This document shows, one piece after another, positions 4,877-55,525 of a stretch of 64,000 nucleotides of DNA. This DNA is from Fodinibius salicampi. Its GTDB lineage: Bacteria; Bacteroidota; Rhodothermia; Balneolales; Balneolaceae. Positions within the stretch are counted from its first letter, which is position 1. Every line of letters starts with the position of its first letter. Both the position numbers and the translations under genes were made by a program. Below the pieces are notes generated by a model. That model did no database searches and was not told the DNA's origin. It saw only the letters and a program-made list of their open reading frames with translations. Location: NCBI RefSeq assembly GCF_039545095.1, contig NZ_BAABRS010000002.1, positions 712,850 to 776,849 on the forward strand. The letters are read 5' to 3'.

Positions 4877-5992
4877 TCAGCCAATAGAAGACATCCATTG
4901 ATAGGTGTCTTCGAGAGTTGAATATTGGATACCAGTAATGGTATCATAAAGTCTTTGAGCAAAGGGACCGATTTGTTCTCGATCTGTTACAATAGTTTGT
5001 CCCTTGTGGTTGATGGAACCTACCGGTGAAATAACGGCAGCAGTACCTGTTCCAAATATTTCTTCGAGATTTCCTTTGTCATCTTCTTCGAAGATCTCAT
5101 CGATGGTAAGGGGACGCTGGTGTATGGGTGTATCCCATTTATCGGCAAGCTGAATGACAGAGTCACGTGTTATTCCTCCCAGAATTGAACCATTTAGTGA
5201 TGGGGTATACAACTCACCATTAATTTTGAAGAAGATATTCATCGTACCTACTTCTTCAATATATTTGTGCTCGTGAGCATCTAACCAGATAATTTGGGTA
5301 AATCCGTTTTCTTTGGCTTTTTTGGCCGGAAGAAGAGTGGGTCCATAATTACATGCCGTCTTTACAAATCCGGATCCTCCTTTAACAGCCCGAATATAGT
5401 CTTCGGTAGTCGTCAAATTAACCGGATCAAATCCCTCTTCATAATAAGCACCAACGGGTGAAGTAAGGACAATCAAGCGATATGTCTGCGCTGGCTTAAC
5501 GCCCAGGCATGCATCCGCGGCAAAAACTATTGGCCGTATATATAGTGCATTTCCATACTTTTCCGGAACCCAATCCCGATCGATAGCAATAAGTTTTTTG
5601 ATCGCCTTGCCCAAAAGATTGGCATCCGGTTGAGGAATACACATTCGGGCACAGGAATTGTTAAATCGATTTAGATGGTCTTGGAGTCGAAAAATGTTTA
5701 CGTCGCCATCCTCGCTTTTGAAAGCCTTCATCCCTTCAAAAACCGTTTGTCCGTAGTGAAGGGTGGCAGTAGCGGGAGAGAGTGAGAGATCACCAAATGG
5801 TACAACCTTAGGTTGCTGCCATTGCCCATCTCGGTATTCCATACTTAGCATATGATCAGAGAAAACATCTCCAAAACCAGGATTATCCAGATCTACGGAA
5901 TGAATCCGGCTTTCTCCTTTACGTTCTACCTGGAGAAATGAAGAATCCTGCTGTTTAGCTGTCTGAGGAATGGCTGACGACTGACGGTTCAT
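4877..5992 (-). CDS. ilvE: Branched-chain amino acid aminotransferase
   Basis: It performs the last step of Ile, Leu and Val synthesis, exchanging the amino group with glutamate in a PLP-dependent reaction. The 371-residue size and motifs such as LHYGQTVFEGMKAF near residue 80 and the GSGFVKTACNYGPTLLPAKK segment identify a fold-type IV, class of long (type II) IlvE; the lysine in the latter region is expected to bind PLP. The start codon overlaps the end of leuB by 4 bp (ATGA), so translation is probably coupled. It is the last gene of the operon and ends 3 bp before a strong terminator stem. Confidence 0.95.
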   Translation of the reverse strand: MNRQSSAIPQTAKQQDSSFLQVERKGESRIHSVDLDNPGFGDVFSDHMLSMEYRDGQWQQPKVVPFGDLSLSPATATLHYGQTVFEGMKAFKSEDGDVNIFRLQDHLNRFNNSCARMCIPQPDANLLGKAIKKLIAIDRDWVPEKYGNALYIRPIVFAADACLGVKPAQTYRLIVLTSPVGAYYEEGFDPVNLTTTEDYIRAVKGGSGFVKTACNYGPTLLPAKKAKENGFTQIIWLDAHEHKYIEEVGTMNIFFKINGELYTPSLNGSILGGITRDSVIQLADKWDTPIHQRPLTIDEIFEEDDKGNLEEIFGTGTAAVISPVGSINHKGQTIVTDREQIGPFAQRLYDTITGIQYSTLEDTYQWMSSIG

Positions 5993-13546: not shown

Positions 13547-15297
13547 TATTCTGGACCTTCAACCATTTCGTTCAATGCGGCTCCTGAGGGAACCATAGGA
13601 TAACAATTTTCTCGTGCTTCAACGCGGAAATCCATTACGACCGGCCGGTCGTTAATCTTCATTGCTTTTTCAAGTATATCATCCATCTCCTCATCATTGG
13701 AGGCTCGATATCCAACGGCGCCATAACTTTCCGCAAGTTTTACAAAATCGGGATTTCCTTTCTTAAGGATAGAGTGGCTATATCTCTTATTGTAGAAAAG
13801 TTCTTGCCACTGCCGGACCATGCCGAGGCATTCATTATTCATAATGGCGATTTTTACCGGCACTTCATATTCAACAGCCGTTGCCAATTCGTATGCTGTC
13901 ATTTGAAATCCACCATCGCCGGTAATACATACAATCGGCCGATCGGGACAACCAAAAGCAGCACCCATTGCGGCGGGGAAACCATACCCCATTGTTCCTA
14001 ATCCACCTGAGGAGAGAAATGACCGCGGATGATTAAAAGTATAGTGTTGGGCAGCCCACATTTGGTGTTGGCCAACATCGGTAACTACAATCGCCTCGCC
14101 ATTTGTTACTTCAGAGATTCGTTCAATCATACGTTGCGGCTTAATAAGCCCTTCAGATTTCGGAACTTTCAGGGGGTGATTCTTTTTCCAGTCTTCAATA
14201 GTATTCCACCAGTCAGTAGTATCAGGCTTGCTGGCCTGTTGATCTATAGCTGAAAGGACATTCTTTACATCTCCAACAATAGGTACCTCAACCGGAACAT
14301 TCTTTCCAATATTAGAAGGATCAATATCAATATGGATTTTCTTGGAATGCGGAGAAAATCCATCGAGTCGGCCCGTAACCCTGTCATCGAATCTTGCGCC
14401 TGCGGCCAAAAGTACATCGCATTCGGTAGTAGCCATATTTGCATAATAGGTGCCATGCATTCCCAGCATTCCGAGTGATTGGGGTTTACTTTCGGGAAAT
14501 CCACCCAAGCCCATTAATGTAGTTGTTACCGGAATATTGAGACGTTCAGCCATTGCAGTGAGTTCTTCCCAGGCTTCCCCAAGAATAACACCACCGCCGG
14601 CATAAATAAGCGGCTTCTTGGCATTGCTAAGCATTTGGGCTGCTTTGGAAACCTGTGTGGAATGTCCCTCACGCGTAGGTTTATAGCTGGGGATAGAAAC
14701 TTTCTTTAAGCCGCTGTAGTGGGCCTCGCTTTTGATCATATCCTTTGGGAGATCAACGAGTACAGGCCCCGGTCGCCCGCTTGTTGCTACATGAAATGCT
14801 TCCCGGATAACCTGTTCAAGATTACTGACATCCTTAACCAAATAATTATGCTTGGTTATGGGACGAGTGATGCCTACAATATCCGCTTCCTGGAAAGCAT
14901 CATTTCCAATCATATCTGTGGGAACCTGGCCGGTGAAAACCACCATGGGAATAGAATCCATGGCGGCGGTAGCAATACCGGTAACCGTATTTGTTCCACC
15001 GGGACCAGAAGTCACCAATACTACTCCGGCTTTTCCAGTGGCACGGGCATAACCATCTGCGGCATGAGCGCCGGCCTGTTCGTGACGTATCAAAACGTGG
15101 TTGATGTCATGTTCGTCAAAAAGGGAATCATAAATAGGCAGAACAGCCCCACCGGGATAACCGAAAATGGTATCCACATTGACATCCTTTAGAGTATTAA
15201 TTAAAATCTCCGCTCCATTTAATACAGCCGTGTCAGGCGTATTCGTAGCTTGGTTCTTATTTTTGTGTTCAGCGGGTTCTGTTTTTGGCTGTGCCAT
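13546..15297 (-). CDS. ilvB: Acetolactate synthase, large (catalytic) subunit
   Basis: This ThDP/FAD enzyme makes acetolactate from two pyruvates or acetohydroxybutyrate from pyruvate and 2-oxobutanoate. FGYPGGAVLPIYD and HEQAGAHAADGYARATG at the N-terminus include the ThDP-activating glutamate; the ThDP-Mg motif GDGGFQMTAYELATA is near residue 450. Length is 583, as expected. The first 25 residues are polar and poorly conserved. It is the first structural gene of the operon and follows a hydrophobic leader frame by 93 bp, within which lies a 14-bp hairpin, so its expression is probably set by attenuation. Confidence 0.96.
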   Translation of the reverse strand: MAQPKTEPAEHKNKNQATNTPDTAVLNGAEILINTLKDVNVDTIFGYPGGAVLPIYDSLFDEHDINHVLIRHEQAGAHAADGYARATGKAGVVLVTSGPGGTNTVTGIATAAMDSIPMVVFTGQVPTDMIGNDAFQEADIVGITRPITKHNYLVKDVSNLEQVIREAFHVATSGRPGPVLVDLPKDMIKSEAHYSGLKKVSIPSYKPTREGHSTQVSKAAQMLSNAKKPLIYAGGGVILGEAWEELTAMAERLNIPVTTTLMGLGGFPESKPQSLGMLGMHGTYYANMATTECDVLLAAGARFDDRVTGRLDGFSPHSKKIHIDIDPSNIGKNVPVEVPIVGDVKNVLSAIDQQASKPDTTDWWNTIEDWKKNHPLKVPKSEGLIKPQRMIERISEVTNGEAIVVTDVGQHQMWAAQHYTFNHPRSFLSSGGLGTMGYGFPAAMGAAFGCPDRPIVCITGDGGFQMTAYELATAVEYEVPVKIAIMNNECLGMVRQWQELFYNKRYSHSILKKGNPDFVKLAESYGAVGYRASNDEEMDDILEKAMKINDRPVVMDFRVEARENCYPMVPSGAALNEMVEGPE

Positions 15298-42847: not shown

Positions 42848-44569
42848 CTAATATCCGGTTACAATCCCGTTACCCCTGGGATCTGCAGCGCCGTATTTGA
42901 TTCCTGTCTCATCAATATAAATAGTATGAGCTTGTCCTGAGCTTTCAATTGATTTTAATTTGTGTCCCAATTCTTCCAGGCTATGTTGGGTATCGGGACT
43001 TAAAGTATACTCCTCATAATAGAGTGTATCGGGCATCCACTGGTGATGGAAACGGGGGGCCGAGTTTGCTTTTTGAGTCGGCATTTCAAAAACGGCCATA
43101 TTCAAAAAATTATGGAGGGTTGCAGTGATAATGCGTGGTCCGCCAGCGGCCCCCAATACCATGCGTACTGAATCATTCTTTGTTACGATGGCAGGCGACA
43201 TACTGCTAAGCATTCTTTTTTGAGATTTTATAGCATTTGCTTTTCCCTGTATCAACCCAAACATATTAGGTTCGCTCGGTTCGGCTGTAAAGTCATCCAT
43301 CTCGTTATTCAGAAAGAAACCGGCCCCGTCAACAGCGACCTTACTACCGAAGTTACCGTTGAGAGTAGTGGTAACAGCTACGGCATTTCCCTGTTCATCT
43401 ACTATTGAGAAGTGGGTTGTCTCTTTGGATTCTGGAAAGGGAATATCACCATGATCAATTTTATCACTGTTTGAGACGGTATCCCAGCTAAAACTCTTCA
43501 TGCGTTTTTTGTTATAGGCAGAATCCAAAAGTTTATCCTGTGGAATATTTACAAAGTCGGGATCGCCTAAAAAGTGGGCGCGGTCGGCAAACGCACGCCG
43601 CATGGTTTCAGTCAAAAGATGAATATATTTTGCGGAGTTAAATCCTAATTTTTTAAGATTATAGGGATTTAACATATTCAATATTTGAGCAATAGCAATA
43701 CTTCCACTGCTGGGGGGCGGCATTATATGGAGATTAAAGTCTCTAAATGGAGTACGAACGGGTGTCCGCCAGATACTTTCATAAGCCTTGAGATCTTTGT
43801 GGGAAATTAGTCCACCCTGATTTTCCATCTCTTTCACAATTAGATCTGCCGTATGTCCTTCATAGAATCCTGCGCGACCGTTTTTCGCAATGCGCTCTAA
43901 TGTTTTGGCCAAATCAGCTTGGACAAAATGTTCATTTTCTTTCCATTTAGTACTGTCTGCTTTCAGAAAGTAGCGTGATGTCCCCTCATATTTTCCCAAA
44001 ACCTTCCGGTAGTTGTTTAGCGTTTCGGTTTGTTTATAGGAGAGCGGATAGCCGTTACGGGCCAACTTAATGGCGGGTTCAATAACTTCTTTAAGGGAGA
44101 GAGTCCCATATTTATTGAGAGCCTTCACCATGCCATCGACGGTTCCGGGAACCCCGGAAGCCAAGGCCCCTTCACGACTAAGTTTGGGGACATATTGTCC
44201 ATCCCGAATATACATATCCTTGTCTGCCTTAAGCGGGGCCTTTTCCCGAAAGTCCAGGGCTATACTGCTGCCGTCTTCGAGGTGAATCACCATGAATCCA
44301 CCGCCTCCGATATTGCCGGCGCGGGGTAGGGTTACTGCGAGAGCAAACTGGACGGCCACTGCTGCATCAATGGCATTGCCACCCTGTTTGAGTATACGAC
44401 GTCCAACTTCAGATGCATGCTTTTCAGCGGTTACAACAATTCCATTTTCATAAGACTTTGTCCATCCTATCTGGGCCTTGATTTCAAGTGGTAAGCTTAA
44501 AAAAAGAGATATAGTAAAAATCCAAAACGGACATCGATAAAAATACGTGGTCTTCATCAGCCTACTCAT
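42848..44569 (-). CDS. ggt: Gamma-glutamyltranspeptidase
   Basis: It cleaves glutathione-like gamma-glutamyl bonds or transfers the gamma-glutamyl group, in the periplasm. A signal peptide covers about the first 32 residues (hydrophobic WIFTISLFLSLPL). The self-cleavage threonine is in KETTHFSIVDEQGN, starting the small subunit, and PPPSSGSIAIAQIL and AAGGPRIITA hold substrate-site residues. The first ATG (44569) or the one four codons later could be the start. In a bacillithiol-using organism the substrate may not be glutathione. About 250 bp downstream of the neighbouring minus-strand orphan gene hold no gene. Confidence 0.92.
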   Translation of the reverse strand: MSRLMKTTYFYRCPFWIFTISLFLSLPLEIKAQIGWTKSYENGIVVTAEKHASEVGRRILKQGGNAIDAAVAVQFALAVTLPRAGNIGGGGFMVIHLEDGSSIALDFREKAPLKADKDMYIRDGQYVPKLSREGALASGVPGTVDGMVKALNKYGTLSLKEVIEPAIKLARNGYPLSYKQTETLNNYRKVLGKYEGTSRYFLKADSTKWKENEHFVQADLAKTLERIAKNGRAGFYEGHTADLIVKEMENQGGLISHKDLKAYESIWRTPVRTPFRDFNLHIMPPPSSGSIAIAQILNMLNPYNLKKLGFNSAKYIHLLTETMRRAFADRAHFLGDPDFVNIPQDKLLDSAYNKKRMKSFSWDTVSNSDKIDHGDIPFPESKETTHFSIVDEQGNAVAVTTTLNGNFGSKVAVDGAGFFLNNEMDDFTAEPSEPNMFGLIQGKANAIKSQKRMLSSMSPAIVTKNDSVRMVLGAAGGPRIITATLHNFLNMAVFEMPTQKANSAPRFHHQWMPDTLYYEEYTLSPDTQHSLEELGHKLKSIESSGQAHTIYIDETGIKYGAADPRGNGIVTGY

Positions 44570-44817
44570 TTTGTTTATTTTTTTCGCTAGGGTGATTTTA
44601 TAGAGAGTGCTGGGTACTATACAATAAATGAGATTATTCCTGAAATGAGTATAGATATAAAATTATGGGAAATCACATCAAATCGGAGTGGGTTTATTCG
44701 ACTGTAATTCGAAACCTAATCATAGATCATATCCAGATTTATGGATTGATATAATGATAAGCATAAAATATCGAAGAAATTTTCGGCTTAACCCATCAAT
44801 AATTAATATGATGAGTG

Positions 44818-45003
44818 CTATTTATCTAAATAGTTGTTTTGTTTTGCTTCATGTATTGCATTCAGCAAAAGACGTACCTCCAAAAGGAGTTTATGATCAT
44901 CCTTACACTTATCCTTTATAAATTTTTTTTGTTCCTGTATAGTGTTTAGTGATAAAGCCTGATCGACTATTAATTCAATTTTTTTCCACCGTTGTTGTTT
45001 CAT
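44818..45003 (-). CDS. Orphan 61-residue protein similar to the N-terminus of the nearby Ser/Thr kinase
   Basis: The sequence begins QQRWKKIELIVDQAL and continues with a spaced CK and DD pattern that matches the first 60 residues of the kinase at 48747-51452 (QQQWKKINNIVDTAL). Only this helical segment is present: it stops before any kinase motif, and I see no kinase-like code in the next 250 bp. GAGAGGG stands a few bases before the ATG, and a promoter-like element shared with three lipoprotein genes lies 35 bp upstream. It may be a remnant of a deleted second kinase or a short regulator that competes for a partner. Function unknown. Confidence 0.65.
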   Translation of the reverse strand: MKQQRWKKIELIVDQALSLNTIQEQKKFIKDKCKDDHKLLLEVRLLLNAIHEAKQNNYLDK

Positions 45004-45037
45004 AGTCCCTCTCTTTACTAAGGCGTTTTACCTTCCT

Positions 45038-45079
45038 TCCAATATTATATGCGTAAAGGAAATGTAAAAAAGGCCAAAT
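45038..45079 (-). promoter_or_regulatory. Shared promoter-like element, copy D
   Basis: Read on the minus strand it has ATTTGGCC, then 17 bp, then ACGCATA followed by TAATATTG. The two blocks have the same spacing as copies A, B and C. It stands 34 bp before the ATG of the 61-residue orphan. Confidence 0.6.
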
Positions 45080-45130
45080 TTTATTGATACGAAAAGAAAT
45101 CGTTTTTCGATATATCGGCCAGGTGAATCG

Positions 45131-45172
45131 ATTTGATCCAATTTGTATGAACCTTACGTATATAACTATGTA
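45131..45172 (+). promoter_or_regulatory. Shared promoter-like element, copy A
   Basis: ATTTGATCC and, 17 bp after the first eight bases, ACGTATATAACTATGTA. It lies 47 bp before the collagen-like lipoprotein gene, in the same intergenic region as copy D, which points the other way. Confidence 0.6.
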
Positions 45173-45219
45173 TCGATTTTCATTTATTCACTATTTCTAA
45201 ATAACATTTCTATAAAGTT

Positions 45220-46425
45220 ATGTATCGACTATCAAGAATCATGACGTTAATTGTAATTATAATCTTACCGTTTTTCTTGGGCTGTGAAGGTCCACAGGGA
45301 CCAAACGGGTCACAAGGTCCACAGGGACCTGAGGGTCCGGTTGGACCGGCCGGGGAGGACGGTAGTGTGATGTATTCAGGACAAGGAGGACCTAGTGCTG
45401 ATATTGGAGATAATGGTGATTATTACCTGAATCAAAATACCGGTGAGCTGTACGGCCCCAAAGACAGCGACGGCTGGGGGAATCCGATTATTGTATTGAT
45501 GGGGGAAGACGGCCAGGATGGAGCTGACGGAGAAGACGGTACCCAGATCCACGCCGGAAGTGGAGCCCCGGACGCCTCTGTTGGAGTAGTGGGCGATTTT
45601 TATATCGATACGGCTAACCAAAACCTGTACGGACCGAAAACAGACAACGGCTGGGGCAGTGCGATTGACCTGAACGGTGAAGATGGGGCCGACGGACAAG
45701 ATGGAGCTGATGGGGAAGACGGGAGTCAGATTTATTCGGGCTCCGGAAGCCCTGATGCCTCGCTGGGAACCACCGGTGATTATTATTTTGATACCGCCAA
45801 TAAGGATTTGTACGGCCCTAAAACGGACAGCGGCTGGGGAACGCCCACGAACCTGAGTGGCGATGACGGACAGGATGGGGAAGACGGCAGCCAGATTTAT
45901 GCCGGCACGGGTACCCCCGATGCGTCGCTGGGAGTTGAAGGAGATTATTACCTTGATAAAAGCAGCTATGAGTTATACGGACCTAAAACAAATAATGGCT
46001 GGGGTACTCCTATAAACTTGAAAGGGGCGGATGGCAATGCCAATGTAACGCGGTATATTTTCCCAGCTCACGACTTTTCATTTGATTCTAGCTTTAATGA
46101 ATCAATAAATATAGACGGTGATGATGTAAATGAAAGTGTCTGGCTTGCGTATATGGTTAGTACTAATGGATGGAAATACCAAATTACCAACGGGGAGGCA
46201 TATGGTTCAGTTTATAAATTTTATCACGCTACAAGTAGTGCCATTATGGTAATTGATTTAAAAGAGGGCACGGGTGAGGTCTATGATCCAATCGAGATCG
46301 TACGAATTGAATCCAGTGAAACGGTGGATTACCGCAAGCAGAAAGGGGACTCCATCATTCCCGATGATTTGGATACCTCCGACTATGAAGCCGTAGCGGA
46401 CTATTATAACTTTTACAGTGAATAG
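45220..46425 (+). CDS. Collagen-like repeat lipoprotein
   Basis: A signal peptide with lipobox FFLGC (Cys22) exports this 401-residue protein. Residues 23-47 are Gly-X-Y triplets (GPQGPNGSQGPQGPEGP), and residues 47-272 hold four copies of a 51-61-residue unit with the core DGSQIYAGSGxPDASxG, GDYYxD, LYGPKT and GWGxP, separated by further GxDGxDG triplets. The last 130 residues are unique, with YIFPAHDF and VWLAYMVS. Such layouts occur in surface stalk or fibre proteins. It probably sits on the cell surface; the repeats suggest a length-variable spacer. Role unknown. Confidence 0.82.
   Translation: MYRLSRIMTLIVIIILPFFLGCEGPQGPNGSQGPQGPEGPVGPAGEDGSVMYSGQGGPSADIGDNGDYYLNQNTGELYGPKDSDGWGNPIIVLMGEDGQDGADGEDGTQIHAGSGAPDASVGVVGDFYIDTANQNLYGPKTDNGWGSAIDLNGEDGADGQDGADGEDGSQIYSGSGSPDASLGTTGDYYFDTANKDLYGPKTDSGWGTPTNLSGDDGQDGEDGSQIYAGTGTPDASLGVEGDYYLDKSSYELYGPKTNNGWGTPINLKGADGNANVTRYIFPAHDFSFDSSFNESINIDGDDVNESVWLAYMVSTNGWKYQITNGEAYGSVYKFYHATSSAIMVIDLKEGTGEVYDPIEIVRIESSETVDYRKQKGDSIIPDDLDTSDYEAVADYYNFYSE
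45358..46035 (+). repeat. Four degenerate tandem repeats in the collagen-like lipoprotein
   Basis: The units start near 45358, 45535, 45718 and 45883. They encode the DG-x-QIY...GDYY...LYGPK...GWG core; the copies differ at many third positions, so the array is old, or kept by selection on the protein. Confidence 0.82.
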
Positions 46426-46503
46426 TAATCAGTTGTTAAGAATGGTATTTAATCGCTGATTATACCTATTAGCATAAATATGTTTGGAAGGTAGTAAAAC
46501 TTC

Positions 46504-46536
46504 AAAAGGCTCTGCTGAAAGGCAGGGCCTTTTTAT
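46504..46536 (+). terminator. Terminator after the collagen-like lipoprotein
   Basis: AAAGGCTCTGC pairs with GCAGGGCCTTT (11 bp with one G-T pair) and is followed by TTTATTTT. Confidence 0.85.
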
Positions 46537-46583
46537 TTTCGTCAATGCATAACAAGACTTTCTGTTTGGTATTGCAAATGTGA

Positions 46584-46625
46584 ATTTGTCCCCATCCCGT
46601 AAGAGATTACGCATAGTACTATGTA
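46584..46625 (+). promoter_or_regulatory. Shared promoter-like element, copy B
   Basis: ATTTGTCC, 17 bp, then ACGCATAGTACTATGTA. It lies 32 bp before the start of the small lipoprotein gene and after a terminator, which is the right place for a promoter. Confidence 0.65.
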
Positions 46626-46657
46626 GAATTTTTAAAGGTGAACCAAAGTTCAATATT

Positions 46658-47263
46658 ATGCAAAAATCGATATTTACCCTATTCTTTTCACTGTTAATAC
46701 TATTTTTTGTTTCTTGTGATAACACCGGTACCGAACCAGAACCCCTCGAATTTGTAACTGAACCTTCTGATGATTTAACACAAATGATTGAAGAAACTCC
46801 GAGTGATTTTACCTGGGAGTATTTCGGGCCAAATATTCAAATTAGCCTTCAGTCAGATAATGACTGGGAAGGAGAACTGGTATTATCCGGTTTCCAGATT
46901 GCAAATAATGAAATTATAGATCGAATTACCACTAATTCCTATCCGGCTAATTCTGAAATGCTATCCGGAGATGGTATTCTTGGAAGTGATTTAACTATCG
47001 ATTTTCACGTCCCGGGTTGGGGTGATTGGAAAGTAATATCCGATATAAACTTGAAGTGGAATAATACAAAGGTTCAGGAACATATTGAGCTTTGGGAAGT
47101 GAATGAGAGTTGGTCTCCTTCTGAAATTGAGGATGCGATTTTATCAGAAGTTGATCTTGAAGAAAATGAGACGCTCTTCGTGGTGTATGCTCAACTTGCA
47201 GGAGAGTCTCCGGAGAGAGAACAAACTATACGACCGTTTGGTTTGCTCATGAGAGAAGAGTGA
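46658..47263 (+). CDS. Small exported lipoprotein of unknown function
   Basis: Starting at ATG 46658 gives a clean lipoprotein signal (MQKSIFTLFF, then lipobox FFVSC with Cys20); the frame is open further upstream but that part overlaps the promoter-like element. After a Glu/Pro linker the 201-residue chain is rich in beta-prone sequence (WEYFGPNIQISLQ, WEGELVLSGFQI, PGWGDWKVISDI). I do not recognise the family. It has its own upstream element B, so it is likely transcribed alone. Confidence 0.72.
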   Translation: MQKSIFTLFFSLLILFFVSCDNTGTEPEPLEFVTEPSDDLTQMIEETPSDFTWEYFGPNIQISLQSDNDWEGELVLSGFQIANNEIIDRITTNSYPANSEMLSGDGILGSDLTIDFHVPGWGDWKVISDINLKWNNTKVQEHIELWEVNESWSPSEIEDAILSEVDLEENETLFVVYAQLAGESPEREQTIRPFGLLMREE

Positions 47264-47329
47264 TTTCCTACTAGAAAAGGCGATGACAGAGAAGCTAACT
47301 TTACAGTCTGCTAGTGGGTATTTGGATCG

Positions 47330-47371
47330 ATTTGTCCTCATTCCGTATTTAATCACGCATATTACTATGTA
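47330..47371 (+). promoter_or_regulatory. Shared promoter-like element, copy C
   Basis: ATTTGTCC, 17 bp, then ACGCATATTACTATGTA, nearly the same as copy B. The region before ATTTG (GATCG) also matches copy A. It lies 53 bp before the protease gene. Confidence 0.65.
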
Positions 47372-47424
47372 GAAGAATTATAAGACAAATCAATGATTCA
47401 AGTTAAATTCAAGAGGTGACCTTT

Positions 47425-48573
47425 ATGGGAACACAGAAAAGTTACTTAACAACTAAGAATTCTAATTTTTTATCTTCTCTTCGGTTTATTGTTAAGCAGG
47501 GTGGTATTTTATTTGCAGGTTTATTCCTGTTGTTTGGAATCTCCGCCTGTGATATTACCGAGGAACAGGCAGAAGAAAAGGAGGGACAGGAAGAAGTAGA
47601 GTTTGTTAATCAGGAAATCTCAACTGAAGAGGCTGCAGAAGCCCGGGATTTCTGGACCACTGAGCGACTACAGCAAGCGGAACCGTATCAGCCTGAGTGG
47701 GAAAGCCACGAAGAGGAAGATCCTCCAGGTACACAACCTAACTATGATGTACCTGGAGAATCCGTGGAGTTACTGCAAAGGGAAGGAAATCCTCCTGAAG
47801 TGATGAAGGGAAGTGATACGGGTACCAAGAGAGTAAATAAAGATACCCAGGTACGTGATGCTTCCCAGGTTAGTGAGAACTATACTCAGTATCCATACCG
47901 ATCAGTGGGTAAGGTATTTTTTACAAAAGATGACAACTGGTTTTCATGTAGCGCTTCAGTTATAGCATCGGAGAACCGGAGTGTGGTTTGGACCGCAGGG
48001 CACTGTGTGTCTGAACAAGGAGAAGAAGACTGGCATGATAATTGGATCTTTATACCTGCTTATGAAAGTGGGGACGAGCCACTTGGAAGATGGTCAGCTC
48101 GTGTAAAAACAACGATAGTTGCCTGGCATTCGGGCGGAAATCGTAACTATGACTTAGGTGCGGTTGTTGTTGAAAAACGCGACGAACGACCTATTGCCTC
48201 CGTTACCGGTTCGCTCGGATGGTGGTTTAATGCTTCCAGAAATAAAGATTGGAGAGTGCTTGGCTATCCCGGTTCTGGTAATTTATTCAGTGGACAGAAG
48301 ATGTGGGAATGCTTCGCACCATATGACGGTGCAGATGGCGTCGGTTCAAATCCAGGCCCACGTACTTCTGCCATTGTTGATTGTGATATGACCGGAGGAG
48401 CAAGTGGAGGTCCCTGGGTTGTCGCTTTTGAGAATTGTCCCAGTTGCTATATAAACGGCGAAACCAGTTGGGGATGGTGGAGAAGAGGCCATTCTAATCT
48501 GAGTACACAGCTGGCCAGCCCGTATCATGGAAGTGCAGCCCATAACCTGCTTCAGTTTGCCGAAGGATTTTAG
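47425..48573 (+). CDS. V8-like trypsin-fold serine protease, lipoprotein
   Basis: The start at ATG 47425 follows AAGAGGTGA. A long signal with lipobox GISAC (Cys42) exports and anchors the 382-residue protein. An acidic, Pro-rich segment of about 100 residues, perhaps a propeptide, precedes a protease domain with the full triad: TAGHC, NYDLGAVVV and GGASGGPWV. Glutamyl endopeptidases of Staphylococcus V8 type have this layout. Six or more cysteines in the domain suggest disulfides. Together with its promoter element it could belong to the same regulon as the two lipoproteins upstream. Confidence 0.86.
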   Translation: MGTQKSYLTTKNSNFLSSLRFIVKQGGILFAGLFLLFGISACDITEEQAEEKEGQEEVEFVNQEISTEEAAEARDFWTTERLQQAEPYQPEWESHEEEDPPGTQPNYDVPGESVELLQREGNPPEVMKGSDTGTKRVNKDTQVRDASQVSENYTQYPYRSVGKVFFTKDDNWFSCSASVIASENRSVVWTAGHCVSEQGEEDWHDNWIFIPAYESGDEPLGRWSARVKTTIVAWHSGGNRNYDLGAVVVEKRDERPIASVTGSLGWWFNASRNKDWRVLGYPGSGNLFSGQKMWECFAPYDGADGVGSNPGPRTSAIVDCDMTGGASGGPWVVAFENCPSCYINGETSWGWWRRGHSNLSTQLASPYHGSAAHNLLQFAEGF

Positions 48574-48644
48574 GTTAACTGATCAAGTAATTTATTTGGA
48601 TTTTGTGGATGGGGAATGAGATAGTCTGTAGATAATCATGAAAT

Positions 48645-48679
48645 GCCCTCAGCGGTATGAAAGCCACTGAGGGCTTTTT
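48645..48679 (+). terminator. Terminator after the protease gene
   Basis: GCCCTCAG pairs with CTGAGGGC, extended by an inner GG/CC pair, and is followed by TTTTTA. Confidence 0.88.
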
Positions 48680-48746
48680 AACGGAACAAATCAAGAGGCT
48701 GATCGCAGGAAAATATGCAAGCAGAAATGTAGCTATGGTGGGAAAA

Positions 48747-51452
48747 TTATTTTAATGAATAAGTCTTTGCCAAAGAATCAGCGCTGGAATGGTATCCAAG
48801 CTGTTGATAAACCGAGCTGAGTCGCTTTACATTCTGTTGGAAGTCCGGGTGTCCAGTCCCCTGCAACTCTTTTCTTATATCCAGAGCATTTTCCAGTAAA
48901 TCTTTTGCCTGTGAAATTTTTTTTCTTTTTAATTCCAGCTTTGCCCTGTAACTGTATAGGTTAGCAAAACTGATATTTTCGGAATCATACCTATCCCTCA
49001 TTATTGAAAGGGCTTCTTTGAAGACTTTATCGGCAGCCTCAAGGTTGTTTTTAGCTGTAAGCGTTTTTGCCAGATTTGATTTTACGATGCCAACATAGCG
49101 ATGGTTTTCTCCCAGTGATGAGGCGTAAATATCGATAGCATTGCGGTAGGCATGCTCTGCAGAATTCAGTTGTGCTTTCTCAAACAAAGCATTTGCCAGA
49201 TTATTGTAAGCAGTGCCGGTTTGTATATGGGAATAACCTAAAAGGTTTTTTCGGACTTTGAGGGCTTGGCGATAGTAGGTTTCAGCTTGATCATAATTTC
49301 CTTGATCGACAAGGAATCCGGCAAAATTATTCAGGCTTTGAGCTGTTATTGGATGATTTAGACCATAAATCTTTTTTCGTATTTTCAACGTTTCAGTATA
49401 ATAAGTCTCTGCCAAATCAAACTCACCCCTTGTCCGGTATAGGACAGCCAAATTATTTTTTATGTTGGCGACTTTAGGATGAATATTGCCATAATTATTT
49501 TGTCTTATTCTCAGGGCTTCTTGATAAAACTGTCTTGCTGTTTCCAAATTTCCTTTTGACTTTTCGAGGACCCCCAGGTTGTTCAGGCTGTTGGCAATAT
49601 CGGGATGGTTGGGCGTTAAATTATTTTGTCGAATTTCCAGAGCCCTATTATAAAGTACTTCAGCCGAATCGAGATTCTCTTTGTACCTCATCAAGGCTCC
49701 CAGATCACTGAGTGTTTCGGCATATTGGATATCATTGGGACCCAGAATATTTCTTCGGATATCCAGTGCTTTGGCATAATATGGTTCTGCCTGCTGGGTT
49801 TCTTGTGCTTTTTGGTGTAACCCGCCAAGATCGTTATAGATAGATGCAACTTCAGTATTTAATTCGCCATTTATTTTAGTTTGAATGTTGAGGGCACGTT
49901 TTAACAGCATCTCGGCCCTGTCATATTCTCCCAGATTTGTATAAACCCTTCCCATAGTATGCAACATTTGACTTTGAACCCCCGGTTGTTCACCGAGCTG
50001 ATCAATTTGGTTGAGTCCTTCTTCAAGAATAGATTTGACTGGTACTGTTTCTCCGTTGGTTTCAGCGGGATTGCTAGCAGAAAAGAGACTGACTAAAAAT
50101 TCAGAAGTTTCTTGTGCTCTTTCTGCCTGTAGACGAGCTCTGTTTCTTTCCTGGGTTATACGCCAGGTATAAATGCCAGCAAATGAGACAATCAGGAATA
50201 TAAAACCCATTGTGGCTGCCAATTCTGTTTGATGCCTTTTAATAAACTTTTTTGCTTTATAACGTAATGTATCCTTTCGGGCAATAATCGGTCTGTTTTG
50301 TTTATAGCGCCGGAGATCTTCCAAAAATTGTTCAATAGAATCGTATCGTTCTTCCGGTTCCTTTCTTAACGCTTTCTGAACAATAGCATCCAGATCACCT
50401 TTTAACGTTTGGCTAAGTGAAGTAGGCTTTGTATGACGATCTCTTGCTTTCTTTTGACGAATATCATCCGGTAATTGCAAAAACCTCTTGCGGGGTGTCG
50501 AATGAGGCTTCGTCCGGATTATATTTTCAATTTCTGTCAGTTTTTTCCCTTCAAAATCAAAGGGATGTGCTCCGCAAAGCAACTCGTGAAATACAATGCC
50601 GAGCGTATAAATATCCGTCGCAGTGGTAATCGTCCTGTTCTCTATTTGTTCCGGTGACGCATAGCTGTAGGTAAGCAGGCGGGCTCCCGTTTGGGTCTGG
50701 TAAAGGGGTTGTTCCGGGTCTTCATGCTCAAGTAATTTTGCAATGCCAAAATCGAGAATTTTGACTTCCCCATCTTCAGTAACTAAAATATTGGATGGCT
50801 TAAGGTCTCGATGAATAATAGCATTTTTGTGTGCATGTTGAACGGCGCGGCATATTGACCGGAAGAGCTGGATCCGTTCCTCAATGGAAAAGGAATGCTG
50901 GTTGCAATATTCGTATAAAGACTTTCCTTCTACATACTCCATGACCAAGTAAGGCAACCCTTCCGGGGTTAGCCCCCCGTCCAGAAGTTGGGCAATATTG
51001 GGATGATTCAGTTTTGCAAGTATCTGTCGTTCACGCTTGAATCGGGCTACATTTGAAGGAGTTTGCAATCCACGTCGTAATACTTTGAAAGCTACCTGTT
51101 GTTTGTAAGTATCATCCGCTCTCTTAGCTAAAAATACAGAACCCATGCCGCCGTGACCGATGAGTTCAATAACTTCGTAGCTGTCTATAGTAGTTCCAAC
51201 AAGAGCAGCATCTTTCTTCTGGACCTCTTCATTTAAAACATCCTGGGCAAGCTGTTGCTGATAATCGCTAAGTTCTTCCAGGAAACCTTCAGTATCAGAT
51301 TGTTCGATAGCATCAATAAGGGCGGTAACATCCTGCCTGAGCTGCTTGTCTCCCTTGCATTGTTCCTGTATATAGGCGTCTCGTTCTTTTTTTGTCAGTT
51401 CAAGTGCGGTATCTACAATGTTATTTATTTTCTTCCACTGCTGTTGATTCAT
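48747..51452 (-). CDS. Membrane serine/threonine protein kinase with TPR repeats
   Basis: Residues 1-75 form a helical domain also present alone at 44818-45003. The kinase domain (about 92-385) has IGHGGMGSV, the lysine of VAFKVL (K123), HRDLKPSN (214-221), DFG (234-236) and SPEQ. A transmembrane helix (412-430) separates it from ten or so TPR units (about 480-890) of the kinesin-light-chain type, which would lie outside the cytoplasm. The gene follows the ECF sigma gene by 12 bp. In this arrangement the kinase probably senses or binds something through its TPRs and controls the sigma factor (inference from known ECF-kinase pairs). Confidence 0.93.
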   Translation of the reverse strand: MNQQQWKKINNIVDTALELTKKERDAYIQEQCKGDKQLRQDVTALIDAIEQSDTEGFLEELSDYQQQLAQDVLNEEVQKKDAALVGTTIDSYEVIELIGHGGMGSVFLAKRADDTYKQQVAFKVLRRGLQTPSNVARFKRERQILAKLNHPNIAQLLDGGLTPEGLPYLVMEYVEGKSLYEYCNQHSFSIEERIQLFRSICRAVQHAHKNAIIHRDLKPSNILVTEDGEVKILDFGIAKLLEHEDPEQPLYQTQTGARLLTYSYASPEQIENRTITTATDIYTLGIVFHELLCGAHPFDFEGKKLTEIENIIRTKPHSTPRKRFLQLPDDIRQKKARDRHTKPTSLSQTLKGDLDAIVQKALRKEPEERYDSIEQFLEDLRRYKQNRPIIARKDTLRYKAKKFIKRHQTELAATMGFIFLIVSFAGIYTWRITQERNRARLQAERAQETSEFLVSLFSASNPAETNGETVPVKSILEEGLNQIDQLGEQPGVQSQMLHTMGRVYTNLGEYDRAEMLLKRALNIQTKINGELNTEVASIYNDLGGLHQKAQETQQAEPYYAKALDIRRNILGPNDIQYAETLSDLGALMRYKENLDSAEVLYNRALEIRQNNLTPNHPDIANSLNNLGVLEKSKGNLETARQFYQEALRIRQNNYGNIHPKVANIKNNLAVLYRTRGEFDLAETYYTETLKIRKKIYGLNHPITAQSLNNFAGFLVDQGNYDQAETYYRQALKVRKNLLGYSHIQTGTAYNNLANALFEKAQLNSAEHAYRNAIDIYASSLGENHRYVGIVKSNLAKTLTAKNNLEAADKVFKEALSIMRDRYDSENISFANLYSYRAKLELKRKKISQAKDLLENALDIRKELQGTGHPDFQQNVKRLSSVYQQLGYHSSADSLAKTYSLK

Positions 51453-51464
51453 ACCGAAAAAGAC

Positions 51465-52037
51465 CTATTTACTCTCTTTCTTTTTTAATTCCTTGTAGAG
51501 CCACCCCCGTGCTTTAGCCCAGTCTCGTTTTACTGTTCGTTCTGAGACTCCCAAAGCATCTGCCGTAGCGTGAACGGTCATCTGTCCAAAGAAACGGAGT
51601 GTTACAACATCGGCCATTCGTTGATCCAGCTGAGCAAGTTTATCGAGTTCCTCATCAAGGTCGATGATTTGTTCTGACTCCTGGTGAACTTTTAACAACT
51701 GGTCAACGTAGGTAACGTCTTTTTGATCTCCCCCGCGTTTTTTTGCTTTCTTTTTACGGGCATGATCAACCAGTATTTGACGCATACATCTGGCGGCAAT
51801 GGCCATAAAATGACTTTTATTTTTGGCCTCGATAGCCTCCTGATCAATCATCTTGATATAAACTTCGTGAACTAATTCGGTTCCCGAGATGGTAACTTCT
51901 CCATGCTCCGATTGAAGTTGGGAATAGGCCAGTCGTTTTAATTCCTTGTAGATAAGTGGGAAAAGTTGGGAATAGGCTTCTTCATCACCCCGTTGAACTT
52001 TTATTAACAGATTGGTGACCTCTGACTTTTTTTTCAT
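51465..52037 (-). CDS. ECF-type RNA polymerase sigma factor (TIGR02999-like)
   Basis: The 190-residue protein has region 2 (LFPLIYKELKRLAYSQL, then ELVHEVYIKM) and region 4 (RMADVVTLRFFGQMTVHATA and LGVSERTVKRDWAKARGWL), joined by a longer linker with many lysines. It belongs to the sigma-70_ECF group often coupled to Ser/Thr kinases and not to a classical anti-sigma. It begins the sigma-kinase unit. I found no copy of the shared A-D element in its own upstream region, so it is not clearly autoregulated through that element. Confidence 0.92.
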   Translation of the reverse strand: MKKKSEVTNLLIKVQRGDEEAYSQLFPLIYKELKRLAYSQLQSEHGEVTISGTELVHEVYIKMIDQEAIEAKNKSHFMAIAARCMRQILVDHARKKKAKKRGGDQKDVTYVDQLLKVHQESEQIIDLDEELDKLAQLDQRMADVVTLRFFGQMTVHATADALGVSERTVKRDWAKARGWLYKELKKKESK

Positions 52038-52155
52038 TATCCCCGAATCAGTTCTTTTGAGTTTTCCAACGACCTTTTTAAATATATATGCTCTTTTAGG
52101 GGTTACAAAACATAAAAGATATTCATAGCTGATATCTTACACATATAACAATATT

Positions 52156-53064
52156 TTACGCCCGGGGATGAAATTCTTTGTGCACCTGGTGCAGCAGTGA
52201 ACGATCCACATGAGTGTATATTTCTGTAGTGATGATCGAAGAATGCCCCAGCATTTCCTGGACGGCGCGCAAATCGGCCCCGCCTTCTAAAAGGTGAGTG
52301 GCAAAGGAATGGCGAAAAATATGGGGATATACATTCTTTTCAATTCCAGCCCGTTCCGCCGCATCGTTGACAATATTCCAGATGCTCATGCGCGACAGTG
52401 GGTTGCCCCGCTGACTGAGGAAAACTTTATTTTGGGATTTTTGAGGATTTTTATCACTCTGAAATTTTGGTCGGACCGTCTCAATATAATGTTCAATAGC
52501 TAGTTGAGCAGCCTCTCCAACCGGGACCAATCGTTCTTTATTTCCTTTTCCCAGTACGCGGATAAAACCGATTTCAAAGATGAGGTTATTTAATTCAAGT
52601 CCCGTCAATTCACTGACGCGCATTCCTGTGGCATAAAGGGTTTCCATTATGGCTGCGTTACGGATTCCCGCATCGGTTTCGCGATTGGGACTGTCAATAA
52701 GCGCAGCAACTTCATCCGGATCTAAAACATCAGGTAGTTCTTTCGTTTTTTGAGGAAGTTCAATCAATTCTGCCGGATTGGCTTCTGCCATTCCCTCTAC
52801 CACAGCAAATTCATGGAACCCGCGTATACTGGATATATTTCGTGCAATAGAACTTACCGCTAGATCCATTGCAGAAAGCTCTTCTATATATTGTTCTATA
52901 TGTTGAAGAGTGACTCCATTTAGATTATGAATCCGAAGGTCACGGGCAACAAATCTCAGATATCGCTGGAGATCATTCTTGTAGGAAAAAACAGAATTTT
53001 CAGAGAGACTTTTTTCAAGTTTAATAAACTGCAAATAGCGTTGTAACTCTTCCTCGTAGTGCAT
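52156..53064 (-). CDS. xerD: Tyrosine recombinase XerC/XerD
   Basis: It resolves chromosome dimers. The N-terminal core-binding domain starts at Met 53064 (MHYEEELQRYLQFIKLEK); the longer open frame into pgpH is not needed. The catalytic residues are seen in YATGMRVSELTGL (Arg), LGKGNKERLVPV (Lys), HIFRHSFATHLL (HxxR), MLGHSS (His) and EIYTHV (Tyr). The 302-residue size fits XerD. It begins 4 bp after the pgpH stop, so the two genes are likely co-translated. Confidence 0.92.
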   Translation of the reverse strand: MHYEEELQRYLQFIKLEKSLSENSVFSYKNDLQRYLRFVARDLRIHNLNGVTLQHIEQYIEELSAMDLAVSSIARNISSIRGFHEFAVVEGMAEANPAELIELPQKTKELPDVLDPDEVAALIDSPNRETDAGIRNAAIMETLYATGMRVSELTGLELNNLIFEIGFIRVLGKGNKERLVPVGEAAQLAIEHYIETVRPKFQSDKNPQKSQNKVFLSQRGNPLSRMSIWNIVNDAAERAGIEKNVYPHIFRHSFATHLLEGGADLRAVQEMLGHSSIITTEIYTHVDRSLLHQVHKEFHPRA

Positions 53065-53068
53065 AGTG

Positions 53069-55525
53069 TTACGAGTTATAATACTCATCAACAGGTGGAG
53101 TGGAGTCTCCTTCTTCTTGTTCTTCGGCTTGTTTACTTTCCGATATTTTTGATCTCTCTGGCTTTTTATCTTCTGAAGACTGATCAGTTGATTCACTTTC
53201 TTTTTCTTCATCCGGGTATTCGACACGACTGTGATAAATACCGACTAAAATATTAAGGAATGTTTCCTTAATAGTAGTAAGATCCTTGAAGGTAAGGGGA
53301 GTCTTGCTAAGTTGACCCTCACTCACACGAGTCTCGATCATTTTATCAATAAGATTTTCGAGCTTTTGATAATTGGGGTCTTTCATGGCCCGGGAGGATG
53401 CTTCAATACAATCAGCCAATAACAGGATGCCGGTCTCTTTAGTTTGGGGGAGGGGGCCATCATATCGAAAATCTTCTTCACGAATCTCTTTTTTATCCTC
53501 ATCAGCATTTTCCTGTGCTTTATCCCAGAAAAATTTAATGAGGGAAGTGCCGTGATGTGTTTTAATGAAGTCAATAATGATCTCCGGCAGTTTATGCTCT
53601 TCTGCTATTTTTACTCCATTGGATACATGGGCTTTGATTACCAGAGCACTCATTCGGGGCTTCAGCTTATCATGTTCATTGCTTTCAGTTTGGTTCTCTG
53701 TAAAATAACCGGGGTTCTCCATTTTGCCGATATCGTGATAAAGTCCTCCTACACGACACAACAAGCTATTGGCACCGATGGCTCCTGCTGCCGCTTCCGC
53801 AAGGTTAGATACCTGCAGGCTGTGATGGAACGAGCCCGGAGCTTTGGTCATAAGATCCTTTAATAACGGCAGGTTGGTGTCGCTCAGCTCTAATAGGGTA
53901 AAGTCAGTAGTAACATTAAATGTTTTTTCAAATAAGAGAATAAGTGGATAGGTAAACAGGATGAAAATGGCATTAATCGCTATGAAAAACAGCTCATTGG
54001 CCAGTGCTGTCCATCCCTGAAAAGCCGTCATGCTAAAGGCTATCACAACAATAGTATATGATAAAAATACGATGCCGGGAGTGGTAAAGAAAAACTGCGA
54101 ACGCTTTTTAATATCACGAACCGAGAACAGGCCTAGGCTACACGCAACTGTAGTTGCTGTTACGTGTTCAAAATTATTGCCGTCAATAAGTCCTGTGAGT
54201 AGCGCAAGTGTAATAGTTGCCAATAATCCTACCCTGGAGTCAAATATGATTGTGAGAATAATGGGGGCAATAGCTACCGGGACAATATAGGATGAAATTG
54301 TATCCAGCTCGTAGACAATAGAGCTGCCTATACAAATAATTGACATAGCAATGAGCACCAGCAGGAGCAGGGCATTATTCTTAAAGATATAACGTCTGTA
54401 AAGGTACAGATAGAAGAAAAAGATGGTGACAATAGCTATTACGGCTATGATATCTCCCCCGTAGCGAAGCCAGCGTTCCATAGTAGTGGCATTTTGGGAA
54501 CGGGCCTCAGCCAGACTTTCAAGCATAGTTAACTTTTCTTCGGTAACAATATCACCTTTGCGGATAATAACCTGTCCTTGTGCTACCGCTCCTTGTGTAG
54601 TAGATACTTCTGACAGGGCTTCCTGAATATGGCTTTGAGTTTCTACAGGATCGAAAAGAATATTCGGTTGAATAACCTGTTCAAATATTCTTGTGCCGGC
54701 AGATACAATGTCCTCACTAAAAGTTTCAGATAAGGTTTGTTGAGTAAATACTATAGACTCTTTTATATCGTACAGATTAGCAACATTACGTGTTCGTTCA
54801 GTACGTTCTTTGAGATCACGGACAATTACTTTGTTTTTCTCCAGAGCACTTTTGGAAGTATCAATAATGCCTTCTTCAAGTAACTGTGTCGTAATATCAG
54901 TAATCTGCTGTTTCAAGACATTGAGAACAAACTCATTACGAACATTAAAGCTGGAAGCAGCAGTCTTATTTTGAATCACCGTTTGCTCATAATGGGTTAT
55001 CAAAGCCTTCCAGGTATCTTCTGAAAAATCCAGAGGAGCATTTTTTTTCATGTTTACAAATTGAAGGCTGTCTGAACGGCTGTCAGTAGCAGTATCTTCC
55101 TTGGCTATTTGCCACTGTTCGTAGCTGTTTAAAACAGGTTCCAGACTTTTGTATAGTGAGTCAAGTCGGTTTTGTATTTGTACATTAGCCTGGGGATCAA
55201 TGTTGTAAATCGGGAGCGTAGCATCTCTGATGTTTTCGCGCTCCATTGCAATGGTTTCCTGATCTTTTTTAATGGGAAAGGTAAAGGGGGCCGTTAAATT
55301 GTCAGCCCTCCATGGTTCTCCGATACTATAATTTATAGGTTCTTTAAAGCTTGTCTGTGGGATGGACGCAATTAATACTCCCAAAAAGCCGAGTATAATA
55401 AGAGACCGAATATAGATATTGTTTTGCAGAGACGAAGATTGCTCTTGTTGCTTTTTCTTTTCCCCGATTACAGGAACCTTTCGCTGTTTTTTAGGGGCCA
55501 GCCCAAGTTTTTCAAGAATGCTCAT
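53069..55525 (-). CDS. 7TM-HD (PgpH-like) cyclic-di-AMP phosphodiesterase
   Basis: An N-terminal anchor and a large extracytoplasmic 7TMR-HD domain (about 60-340) are followed by seven helices (about 350-560) and a cytoplasmic HD domain whose metal site is in SFHHSLQVSN and YHDIGKMENP. Related PgpH degrades cyclic di-AMP in Listeria. The C-terminal 60 residues are acidic and disordered. The 818-residue length is usual for this family in the Bacteroidota. It lies 138 bp after ligA and is followed directly by xerD. Confidence 0.91.
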   Translation of the reverse strand: MSILEKLGLAPKKQRKVPVIGEKKKQQEQSSSLQNNIYIRSLIILGFLGVLIASIPQTSFKEPINYSIGEPWRADNLTAPFTFPIKKDQETIAMERENIRDATLPIYNIDPQANVQIQNRLDSLYKSLEPVLNSYEQWQIAKEDTATDSRSDSLQFVNMKKNAPLDFSEDTWKALITHYEQTVIQNKTAASSFNVRNEFVLNVLKQQITDITTQLLEEGIIDTSKSALEKNKVIVRDLKERTERTRNVANLYDIKESIVFTQQTLSETFSEDIVSAGTRIFEQVIQPNILFDPVETQSHIQEALSEVSTTQGAVAQGQVIIRKGDIVTEEKLTMLESLAEARSQNATTMERWLRYGGDIIAVIAIVTIFFFYLYLYRRYIFKNNALLLLVLIAMSIICIGSSIVYELDTISSYIVPVAIAPIILTIIFDSRVGLLATITLALLTGLIDGNNFEHVTATTVACSLGLFSVRDIKKRSQFFFTTPGIVFLSYTIVVIAFSMTAFQGWTALANELFFIAINAIFILFTYPLILLFEKTFNVTTDFTLLELSDTNLPLLKDLMTKAPGSFHHSLQVSNLAEAAAGAIGANSLLCRVGGLYHDIGKMENPGYFTENQTESNEHDKLKPRMSALVIKAHVSNGVKIAEEHKLPEIIIDFIKTHHGTSLIKFFWDKAQENADEDKKEIREEDFRYDGPLPQTKETGILLLADCIEASSRAMKDPNYQKLENLIDKMIETRVSEGQLSKTPLTFKDLTTIKETFLNILVGIYHSRVEYPDEEKESESTDQSSEDKKPERSKISESKQAEEQEEGDSTPPVDEYYNS

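What the first reader, a model, noticed from the sequence alone, without database searches (positions are those of the whole stretch)
45038..47371. A common ~42-bp promoter-like element before three unrelated lipoprotein genes and an orphan kinase fragment, next to an ECF sigma/kinase pair
Seen directly: copies A (45131-45172), B (46584-46625) and C (47330-47371) on the plus strand and D (45038-45079) on the minus strand align without gaps: ATTTG-x-CC, 17 bp, ACG(C/T)ATA, then (T/A)ACTATG(T/A) in three of them. Each lies 32-53 bp before a start codon. The genes behind them are not homologous, so gene duplication does not explain it. Inference: they are targets of the sigma factor at 51465-52037, which with its TPR kinase would form a local surface-protein regulon. 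The element does not fit the Bacteroidetes -33/-7 form seen before surE. Weak point: the sigma gene itself has no copy.
Basis: partly seen in the sequence, partly recalled or inferred. Interest (0 to 1): 0.8.

Follow-up and report, generated by a model that had tools for sequence, protein, structure and literature searches.

The report
Matched sigma-factor promoters for surface lipoproteins
These DNA elements are a real shared motif that recurs in every searched relative carrying a close version of the neighbouring sigma-factor gene, mostly before surface-lipoprotein genes, so they are likely that sigma factor's start sites, while one of the four copies better fits a sister motif likely read by a second, related sigma factor.

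Summary
The element is real. A model made from 23 sites in seven relatives, own genome left out, finds B (E 8.7e-8), C (1.6e-7) and D (0.033) in the own genome. Of 92 family genomes, nine carry a close relative (67% or more) of the window's ECF sigma; all nine have model hits at E<=1e-3, against 2 of the other 83. Seven of the nine supplied training sites; the two that did not (own genome, and G101 of another genus) are also positive. Of 36 such hits, 32 precede a lipoprotein gene; of the 13 held-out ones, 10 do. Copy A belongs to a sister class (TTTGAGC/TTTGATC with CGTAT, instead of TTTGTCC with CGCAT) that tracks a paralogous sigma elsewhere in the genome. In G007 the paralog's clade occupies the same chromosomal interval and the promoters there are of the sister class. 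The "kinase fragment" is a complete 61-aa gene, conserved in 10 of 12 genus genomes, resembling the kinase's N-terminal domain. Inferred: kinase-activated sigma switches on surface lipoproteins; the small protein may feed back. No transcription data.

The parts
45131..45172 (+). element A, class II-like promoter (TTTGATC ... CGTAT, then ACTATGTA)
   Evidence: R2 E 0.0023; R1 not listed; matrices 13.9 class I, 23.6 class II
46584..46625 (+). element B, class I promoter (TTTGTCC ... CGCAT, then ACTATGTA)
   Evidence: R1 E 8.7e-8; matrices 45.8 class I, 9.0 class II
47330..47371 (+). element C, class I promoter
   Evidence: R1 E 1.6e-7; matrices 42.4 class I, 21.2 class II
45038..45079 (-). element D, variant (TTTGGCC ... 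CGCAT, no ACTATG) before the small gene; class ambiguous
   Evidence: R1 E 0.033; matrices 18.7 and 23.3; like sites before the small gene in most relatives
44818..45003 (-). complete 61-aa gene resembling the N-terminal domain of the TPR kinase
   Evidence: 41% identity to the kinase N-terminus; separate gene in 10 of 12 genus genomes and G101
45220..46425 (+). gene A, collagen-like lipoprotein
   Evidence: (PF01391 E 4.2e-6, just under its cut-off)
46658..47263 (+). gene B, lipoprotein of unknown family; relatives behind class I sites in G008 and G004
   Evidence: (no Pfam)
47425..48573 (+). gene C, lipoprotein with weak trypsin-like similarity
   Evidence: (PF13365 E 2.2e-4, under its cut-off)
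48747..51452 (-). Ser/Thr kinase with TPR repeats; HRDLKP and DFG motifs present
51465..52037 (-). ECF sigma factor, TIGR02999; Thr53 at the EcfK/EcfP phosphosite position
   Evidence: 204.4 bits, cut-off 126.15

Best explanation
Elements B and C match a two-part ECF-type promoter (TTTGTCC, 17 bp, ACGCAT) that is found in all nine family genomes carrying a close relative of the neighbouring sigma gene, and they are likely transcribed by that sigma factor once its kinase has activated it. Element A better fits a sister class (TTTGAGC or TTTGATC, 17 bp, CGTAT) likely read by the paralogous sigma encoded elsewhere in the genome. Shown by sequence: two promoter classes whose two boxes are coupled, their co-occurrence with two sigma clades, and lipoprotein genes behind most sites. 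Inferred: the TPR kinase senses an envelope signal and phosphorylates the sigma at Thr53 (the place of the phosphosites of EcfK and EcfP); the sigma then engages RNA polymerase and starts the lipoprotein genes. Inferred, less sure: the 61-aa protein, with its own promoter D of this family, competes for the sigma or kinase surface used by the kinase's N-terminal domain and damps or tunes the response. The sigma/kinase operon lacks a copy and would be controlled by phosphorylation rather than autoregulation.
For: Relatives-only model recovers B, C, D; a second one recovers A. X-clade sigma (67% identity or more) in 9 of 92 family genomes, all 9 with R1 hits at E<=1e-3, against 2 of 83 others; G101, another genus and not in training, has its best hit about 6 kb from its sigma and before a lipoprotein gene. 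32 of 36 hits precede a lipoprotein gene, 10 of the 13 held out. Boxes coupled: 28 of 31 NCC with CGCA, 16 of 18 A[GTA]C with CGTA, p 3.7e-8. In the genus, R2 hits (E<=0.01) in 10 of 10 genomes with a Y-clade sigma and 0 of 2 without. Natural swap in G007: Y-clade sigma in the ggt-xerC interval, class II sites before the small gene and the divergent lipoprotein gene. X and Y differ cleanly at 11 sigma positions, one (167, Arg/Ser) in the likely -35 recognition helix. Thr at the phosphosite position in 45 of 45 tree sigmas.
Against: No expression or binding data. All 23 training sites are among the 36 hits, and sites before related genes are not independent. R1 training holds two sites of class II make-up (L063:443, L073:15032). 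G009 and G022 have R1 hits without a 67% sigma (G009 has a sister-clade one). G004 has a second X-clade sigma (L061, 64%) with no class I site found beside it. Five of 49 sites mix the two box types. D is ambiguous, the G101 small-gene site is weak (-7.4 and 3.8), and G001 and G011 keep the small gene with a mixed-type site though they have no X sigma. In G006 the sigma lies outside the ggt-xerC interval. In a wider sigma set 3 of 60 lack the Thr.
Confidence: 0.7

Rival explanations
1. Another regulator (a different ECF sigma or a DNA-binding activator) reads the sites, and the sigma/kinase pair is only a passenger in the same island.
For: The conserved block is longer than an ECF promoter should need (spacer TTTCGC and ACTATGTA past the likely start). 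G009 and G022 have hits without a close X sigma; G001 and G011 keep a mixed-type site before the small gene without X sigma.
Against: 9 of 9 genomes with X sigma have hits, including a different genus; in G006 class I sites also lie on other contigs, so the link is not only shared location; sigma clade and promoter class change together in G007.
Confidence: 0.17
2. All four sites belong to one sigma that tolerates both box types, and the split into classes reflects gene families, not sigma choice.
For: A and D lie between B and C in the same island; mixed sites exist (5 of 49); A also carries ACTATGTA like B and C; C scores 21.2 on the class II matrix.
Against: Boxes are coupled; G008 and G009 lack Y sigma and have no R2 hit at E<=0.1, while G001, G007 and G011 lack X sigma and have no R1 hit at E<=1e-3; collagen-like genes occur behind both classes.
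Confidence: 0.15
3. Ordinary housekeeping promoters of the Bacteroidetes -33/-7 type (TTTG ... TAnnTTTG; form recalled).
For: TTTG at the right end; 3 of 4 window sites have TA before CG (TACGYATA).
Against: No window site ends in TTTG; CG is invariant in all 23 R1 training sites; only six R1 places at E<=10 in the whole own genome; restriction to lipoproteins.
Confidence: 0.04
4. The similarity is left over from duplication or recombination of DNA blocks, without promoter function.
For: Relatives' islands hold tandem related lipoproteins with similar upstream blocks.
Against: The window's three genes are unrelated; sites keep a similar distance to the start codon in most loci and occur in another genus.
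Confidence: 0.03

Closest known systems
ECF43 systems EcfP/PknT (Vibrio parahaemolyticus) and EcfK/PknS (Xanthomonas citri)
   Same: ECF sigma beside a Hanks-type kinase; a Thr in region 2.2 in place of the canonical acidic motif (PMC8999054 section 12; PMC13147305 passages); the PknS N-terminus weakly matches the domain described here (E 0.16).
   Different: Different sigma family model (TIGR02999); SGTE rather than STTA or QTTA, so an acidic residue stays next to the Thr; TPR-bearing kinase; lipoprotein targets; a stand-alone copy of the N-domain.
STK-associated ECF groups ECF59, ECF61, ECF62, ECF217 (listed in PMC8999054, passages)
   Same: Sigma genes next to Ser/Thr kinases, no anti-sigma gene, phosphorylation proposed.
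   Different: Group membership was not tested; no promoter or regulon for such groups was seen in the passages read.
Classical ECF regulons with an anti-sigma gene (RpoE/RseA type; general knowledge)
   Same: Two-box promoter with a strict spacer before envelope genes.
   Different: No zinc-finger or membrane anti-sigma gene seen beside this sigma; the sigma gene has no copy of the promoter; the small regulon gene resembles a kinase domain.

Membership tests
TIGR02999 (Sig-70_X6) ECF sigma factors | score over the curated cut-off | tested here: met
   204.4 bits against 126.15
kinase-linked ECF systems | Ser/Thr kinase gene next to the sigma gene | tested here: met
   48747-51452, 12 nt from the sigma gene
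kinase-linked ECF systems | phosphorylatable residue in the region 2.2 motif | tested here: met
   Thr53; 45 of 45 tree sigmas, 57 of 60 in a wider set
kinase-linked ECF systems | kinase phosphorylates and activates the sigma | not testable with these tools
   needs biochemistry
ECF43 | uncharged STTA/QTTA motif in region 2.2 | tested here: not met
   SGTE, acidic residue after the Thr
ECF-type promoter | two conserved boxes at fixed spacing before the start codon | tested here: met
Bacteroidetes -33/-7 promoter | TAnnTTTG at -7 (recalled) | tested here: not met
   A TACGTATA, B TACGCATA, C CACGCATA, D TACGCATA by sequence
anti-sigma factor (61-aa protein) | binds and inhibits a sigma factor | not testable with these tools
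   needs binding assay
anti-sigma factor (61-aa protein) | fold of a known anti-sigma domain | tested here: inconclusive
   three-helix model, pLDDT 87.9; no informative match

The most novel reading that the evidence does not exclude
Kinase-linked ECF sigmas of the TIGR02999 family form insulated paralogous channels, each with its own promoter code set by a few sigma residues such as position 167, that switch exchangeable islands of surface lipoproteins; and a kinase N-terminal domain has been set free as a regulon gene that acts as a soluble feedback regulator of sigma or kinase, a new type of anti-sigma factor.
Probability: 0.35. Interest if true: 0.78.

Novelty: new variant of a known kind. 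Interest (0 to 1): 0.62.

Why it matters
Sigma factors paired with Ser/Thr kinases have few worked-out targets, and a sigma that does not regulate itself escapes promoter prediction from its own upstream region. Here comparison gives two matched sigma/promoter pairs with a natural swap, and a conserved free-standing copy of a kinase domain that PknS may share: a directly testable system for sigma phosphorylation, promoter choice and a possible new kind of anti-sigma protein.

Full report
WHERE IT IS. The window is G000:C2:712850-776849 of an unnamed 3.94-Mb genome. Contigs of its genus-mates G003, G004, G005, G008 and G009 have the lengths of records named Aliifodinibius salipaludis WN023, Fodinibius halophilus 2W32 and uncultured Aliifodinibius, so the genus is taken as Fodinibius/Aliifodinibius.

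OBSERVATION. The four copies are where stated. B and C share 34 of 42 bases, the other pairs 21-26. ATTTG-x-CC fails for A. The three lipoproteins are not detectably related. The 'kinase fragment' is a complete 61-codon ORF, 41% identical to the kinase N-terminus.

RELATIVES. About 19 kb round most TIGR02999 sigma genes of the genus, and some of the family, were fetched. The element recurs, extended, in G002, G003, G004, G005, G006, G008 and G010: ATTTGTCC, a T-rich block often with TTTCGC, ACGCAT, then ACTATGTA. The distance to the start codon is mostly 28-53 nt; some sites in G002, G006 and G010 have leaders of 110-175 nt.

RELATIVES-ONLY SCAN. Model R1 rests on 23 relatives' sites. Two of them (L063:443, L073:15032) have class II boxes. 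In the own genome it lists six places at E<=10: B, C, D, two sites before collagen-like lipoproteins (C3:112134, C3:446942; class II boxes) and one inside a reading frame. In 92 family genomes it gives 36 hits at E<=1e-3. By my count lie within 20 kb of an X-clade sigma and 32 precede a lipoprotein gene; the four that do not are G003:C37:134383, G005:C1:160188, G006:C4:339023 (197 nt from a contig end) and G022:C147:2144. All 23 training sites are among the 36. Of the 13 held-out hits, 6 lie within 20 kb of an X sigma and 10 precede a lipoprotein gene. The nine genomes with a sigma at 67% identity or more all have such hits; of the other 83, G009 and G022 do. G101, another genus and outside training, has its hit (E 1.4e-4) about 6 kb from its X sigma, 48 nt before a lipoprotein gene.

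TWO CLASSES. Among 55 distinct sites before lipoproteins in the fetched loci, 28 of 31 with an NCC-type first box have CGCA and 16 of 18 with A[GTA]C have CGTA; 6 of other type were set aside (p 3.7e-8). Sites before related genes are not independent, so the p-value is optimistic. Model R2 (14 relatives' class II sites, four of them from X-clade loci) lists 23 places at E<=10 in the own genome, eight at E<0.06. Six of these eight precede a gene with a lipobox (five by script, C5:160889 by eye), one a gene with a Sec-type signal by eye, one (C3:363102) neither. Four are collagen-like, gene A among them (E 0.0023). With lipobox genes at 9 of 78 in own-genome stretches, 6 of 8 has p 5e-5. One hit, C1:976044, precedes a collagen-like lipoprotein gene divergent from the paralogous sigma.

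CO-OCCURRENCE. In a tree of 45 sigmas, clade X (11 rows, 98/96) and clade Y (16 rows, 96/91) are separate. In the 12 genus genomes X is in 8; R1 hits at E<=1e-3 are in these 8 and in G009 (p 0.018). Y is in 10; R2 hits at E<=0.01 are in these 10 and not in G008 and G009 (p 0.015). Held out of R2 training among the positives: G000, G001, G006, G011. Against: L061 (G004), an X-clade sigma at 64%, has no class I site beside it. X (10 rows) and Y (16 rows) differ cleanly at 11 positions, among them 167 (Arg in 10 of 10, Ser in 16 of 16) and 82 (Ala/Ser); that 167 lies in the -35 recognition helix is recalled knowledge of the fold.

THE ISLAND. In the window the set lies between ggt (42848-44569) and xerC (52156-53226). 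The X sigma lies between the same two genes in G002, G003, G004, G005, G008 and G010; in G006 only the small gene does, and the sigma is just beyond ggt; in G101 neither flank is in the 20 kb seen. G001 and G011 have the small gene there but no sigma, kinase or lipoprotein genes (G011 also has one other large ORF). G007 has a Y-clade sigma there; the small gene (TGTGAGC..TTCGTAT) and the divergent lipoprotein gene (TGATC..CTCGTAT) carry class II sites.

THE SMALL PROTEIN. It stands alone (59-63 aa) in 10 of 12 genus genomes (a remnant in G002, none in G009) and in G101; G066 has a 74-aa frame of unclear status. Four 61-aa clusters at 77-97% identity are in the protein database, the nearest perhaps standing for the window's own. 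All 13 stand-alone rows share one residue that all 14 kinase rows lack, so the split is old. AlphaFold2 gives three helices, mean pLDDT 87.9. Sites before it: TTTGGCC or TTTGACC with CGCA in G000, G003, G004, G005, G006, G008 and G010; weak in G101; class II in G007; mixed in G001 and G011. So its link to sigma X is not exclusive. PknS has a similar N-terminus (E 0.16), which its authors describe as predicted helices without electron density (PMC13147305, passages). A docking role is my inference.

SIGMA ACTIVATION. EcfP and EcfK are reported to be activated by kinase phosphorylation of a Thr in region 2.2 (PMC8999054 section 12; PMC13147305 passages). The window's sigma has Thr53 there (SGTELVHE); 45 of 45 tree rows have Thr, 57 of 60 in a wider set. 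The acidic residue after it differs from ECF43, so details may differ.

VERDICT. A real ECF-type promoter family matched to sigma clades and, by inference, controlling surface lipoproteins. Not shown: transcription, sigma binding, phosphorylation, any role of the small protein.

Noticed in passing
window 42848-53226 (ggt to xerC): An interval used as a site of variable lipoprotein islands across the genus; nearly empty in G001 and G011, occupied by a Y-clade sigma in G007.
   Followed up: partly
class I sites, e.g. 46584-46625: Conservation in the spacer (TTTCGC) and past the likely start (ACTATGTA) is more than an ECF sigma should need; unexplained.
   Followed up: no
L065:3697-3866 and 5156-5329; L055:2368-2573: Some class I sites in G006 and G002 are followed by long leaders (110-163 nt), in G006 with a repeated G+C-rich block that could be a structured RNA.
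   Followed up: no
L055:2099-2293: A 65-aa stretch 71% identical to the neighbouring XerC-like recombinase lies near the remnant of the small gene in G002.
   Followed up: no
L074 (G010:C1:1366098-1366483): A broken sigma gene with broken kinase N-domain pieces behind it.
   Followed up: no
L198 (G101:C10), L199 (G099:C63): Class II sites directly before kinase genes in another genus, so there the kinase itself may be in the regulon.
   Followed up: no
L056:4403-4966 and 14597-15157: G003 carries two X-clade sigma/kinase pairs in one island.
   Followed up: no
window 45220-46425: Gene A has several repeats of a DG..GDYY....LYGPK..GWG unit besides its collagen-like stretch; the same unit is seen in other genus lipoproteins.
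   Followed up: no
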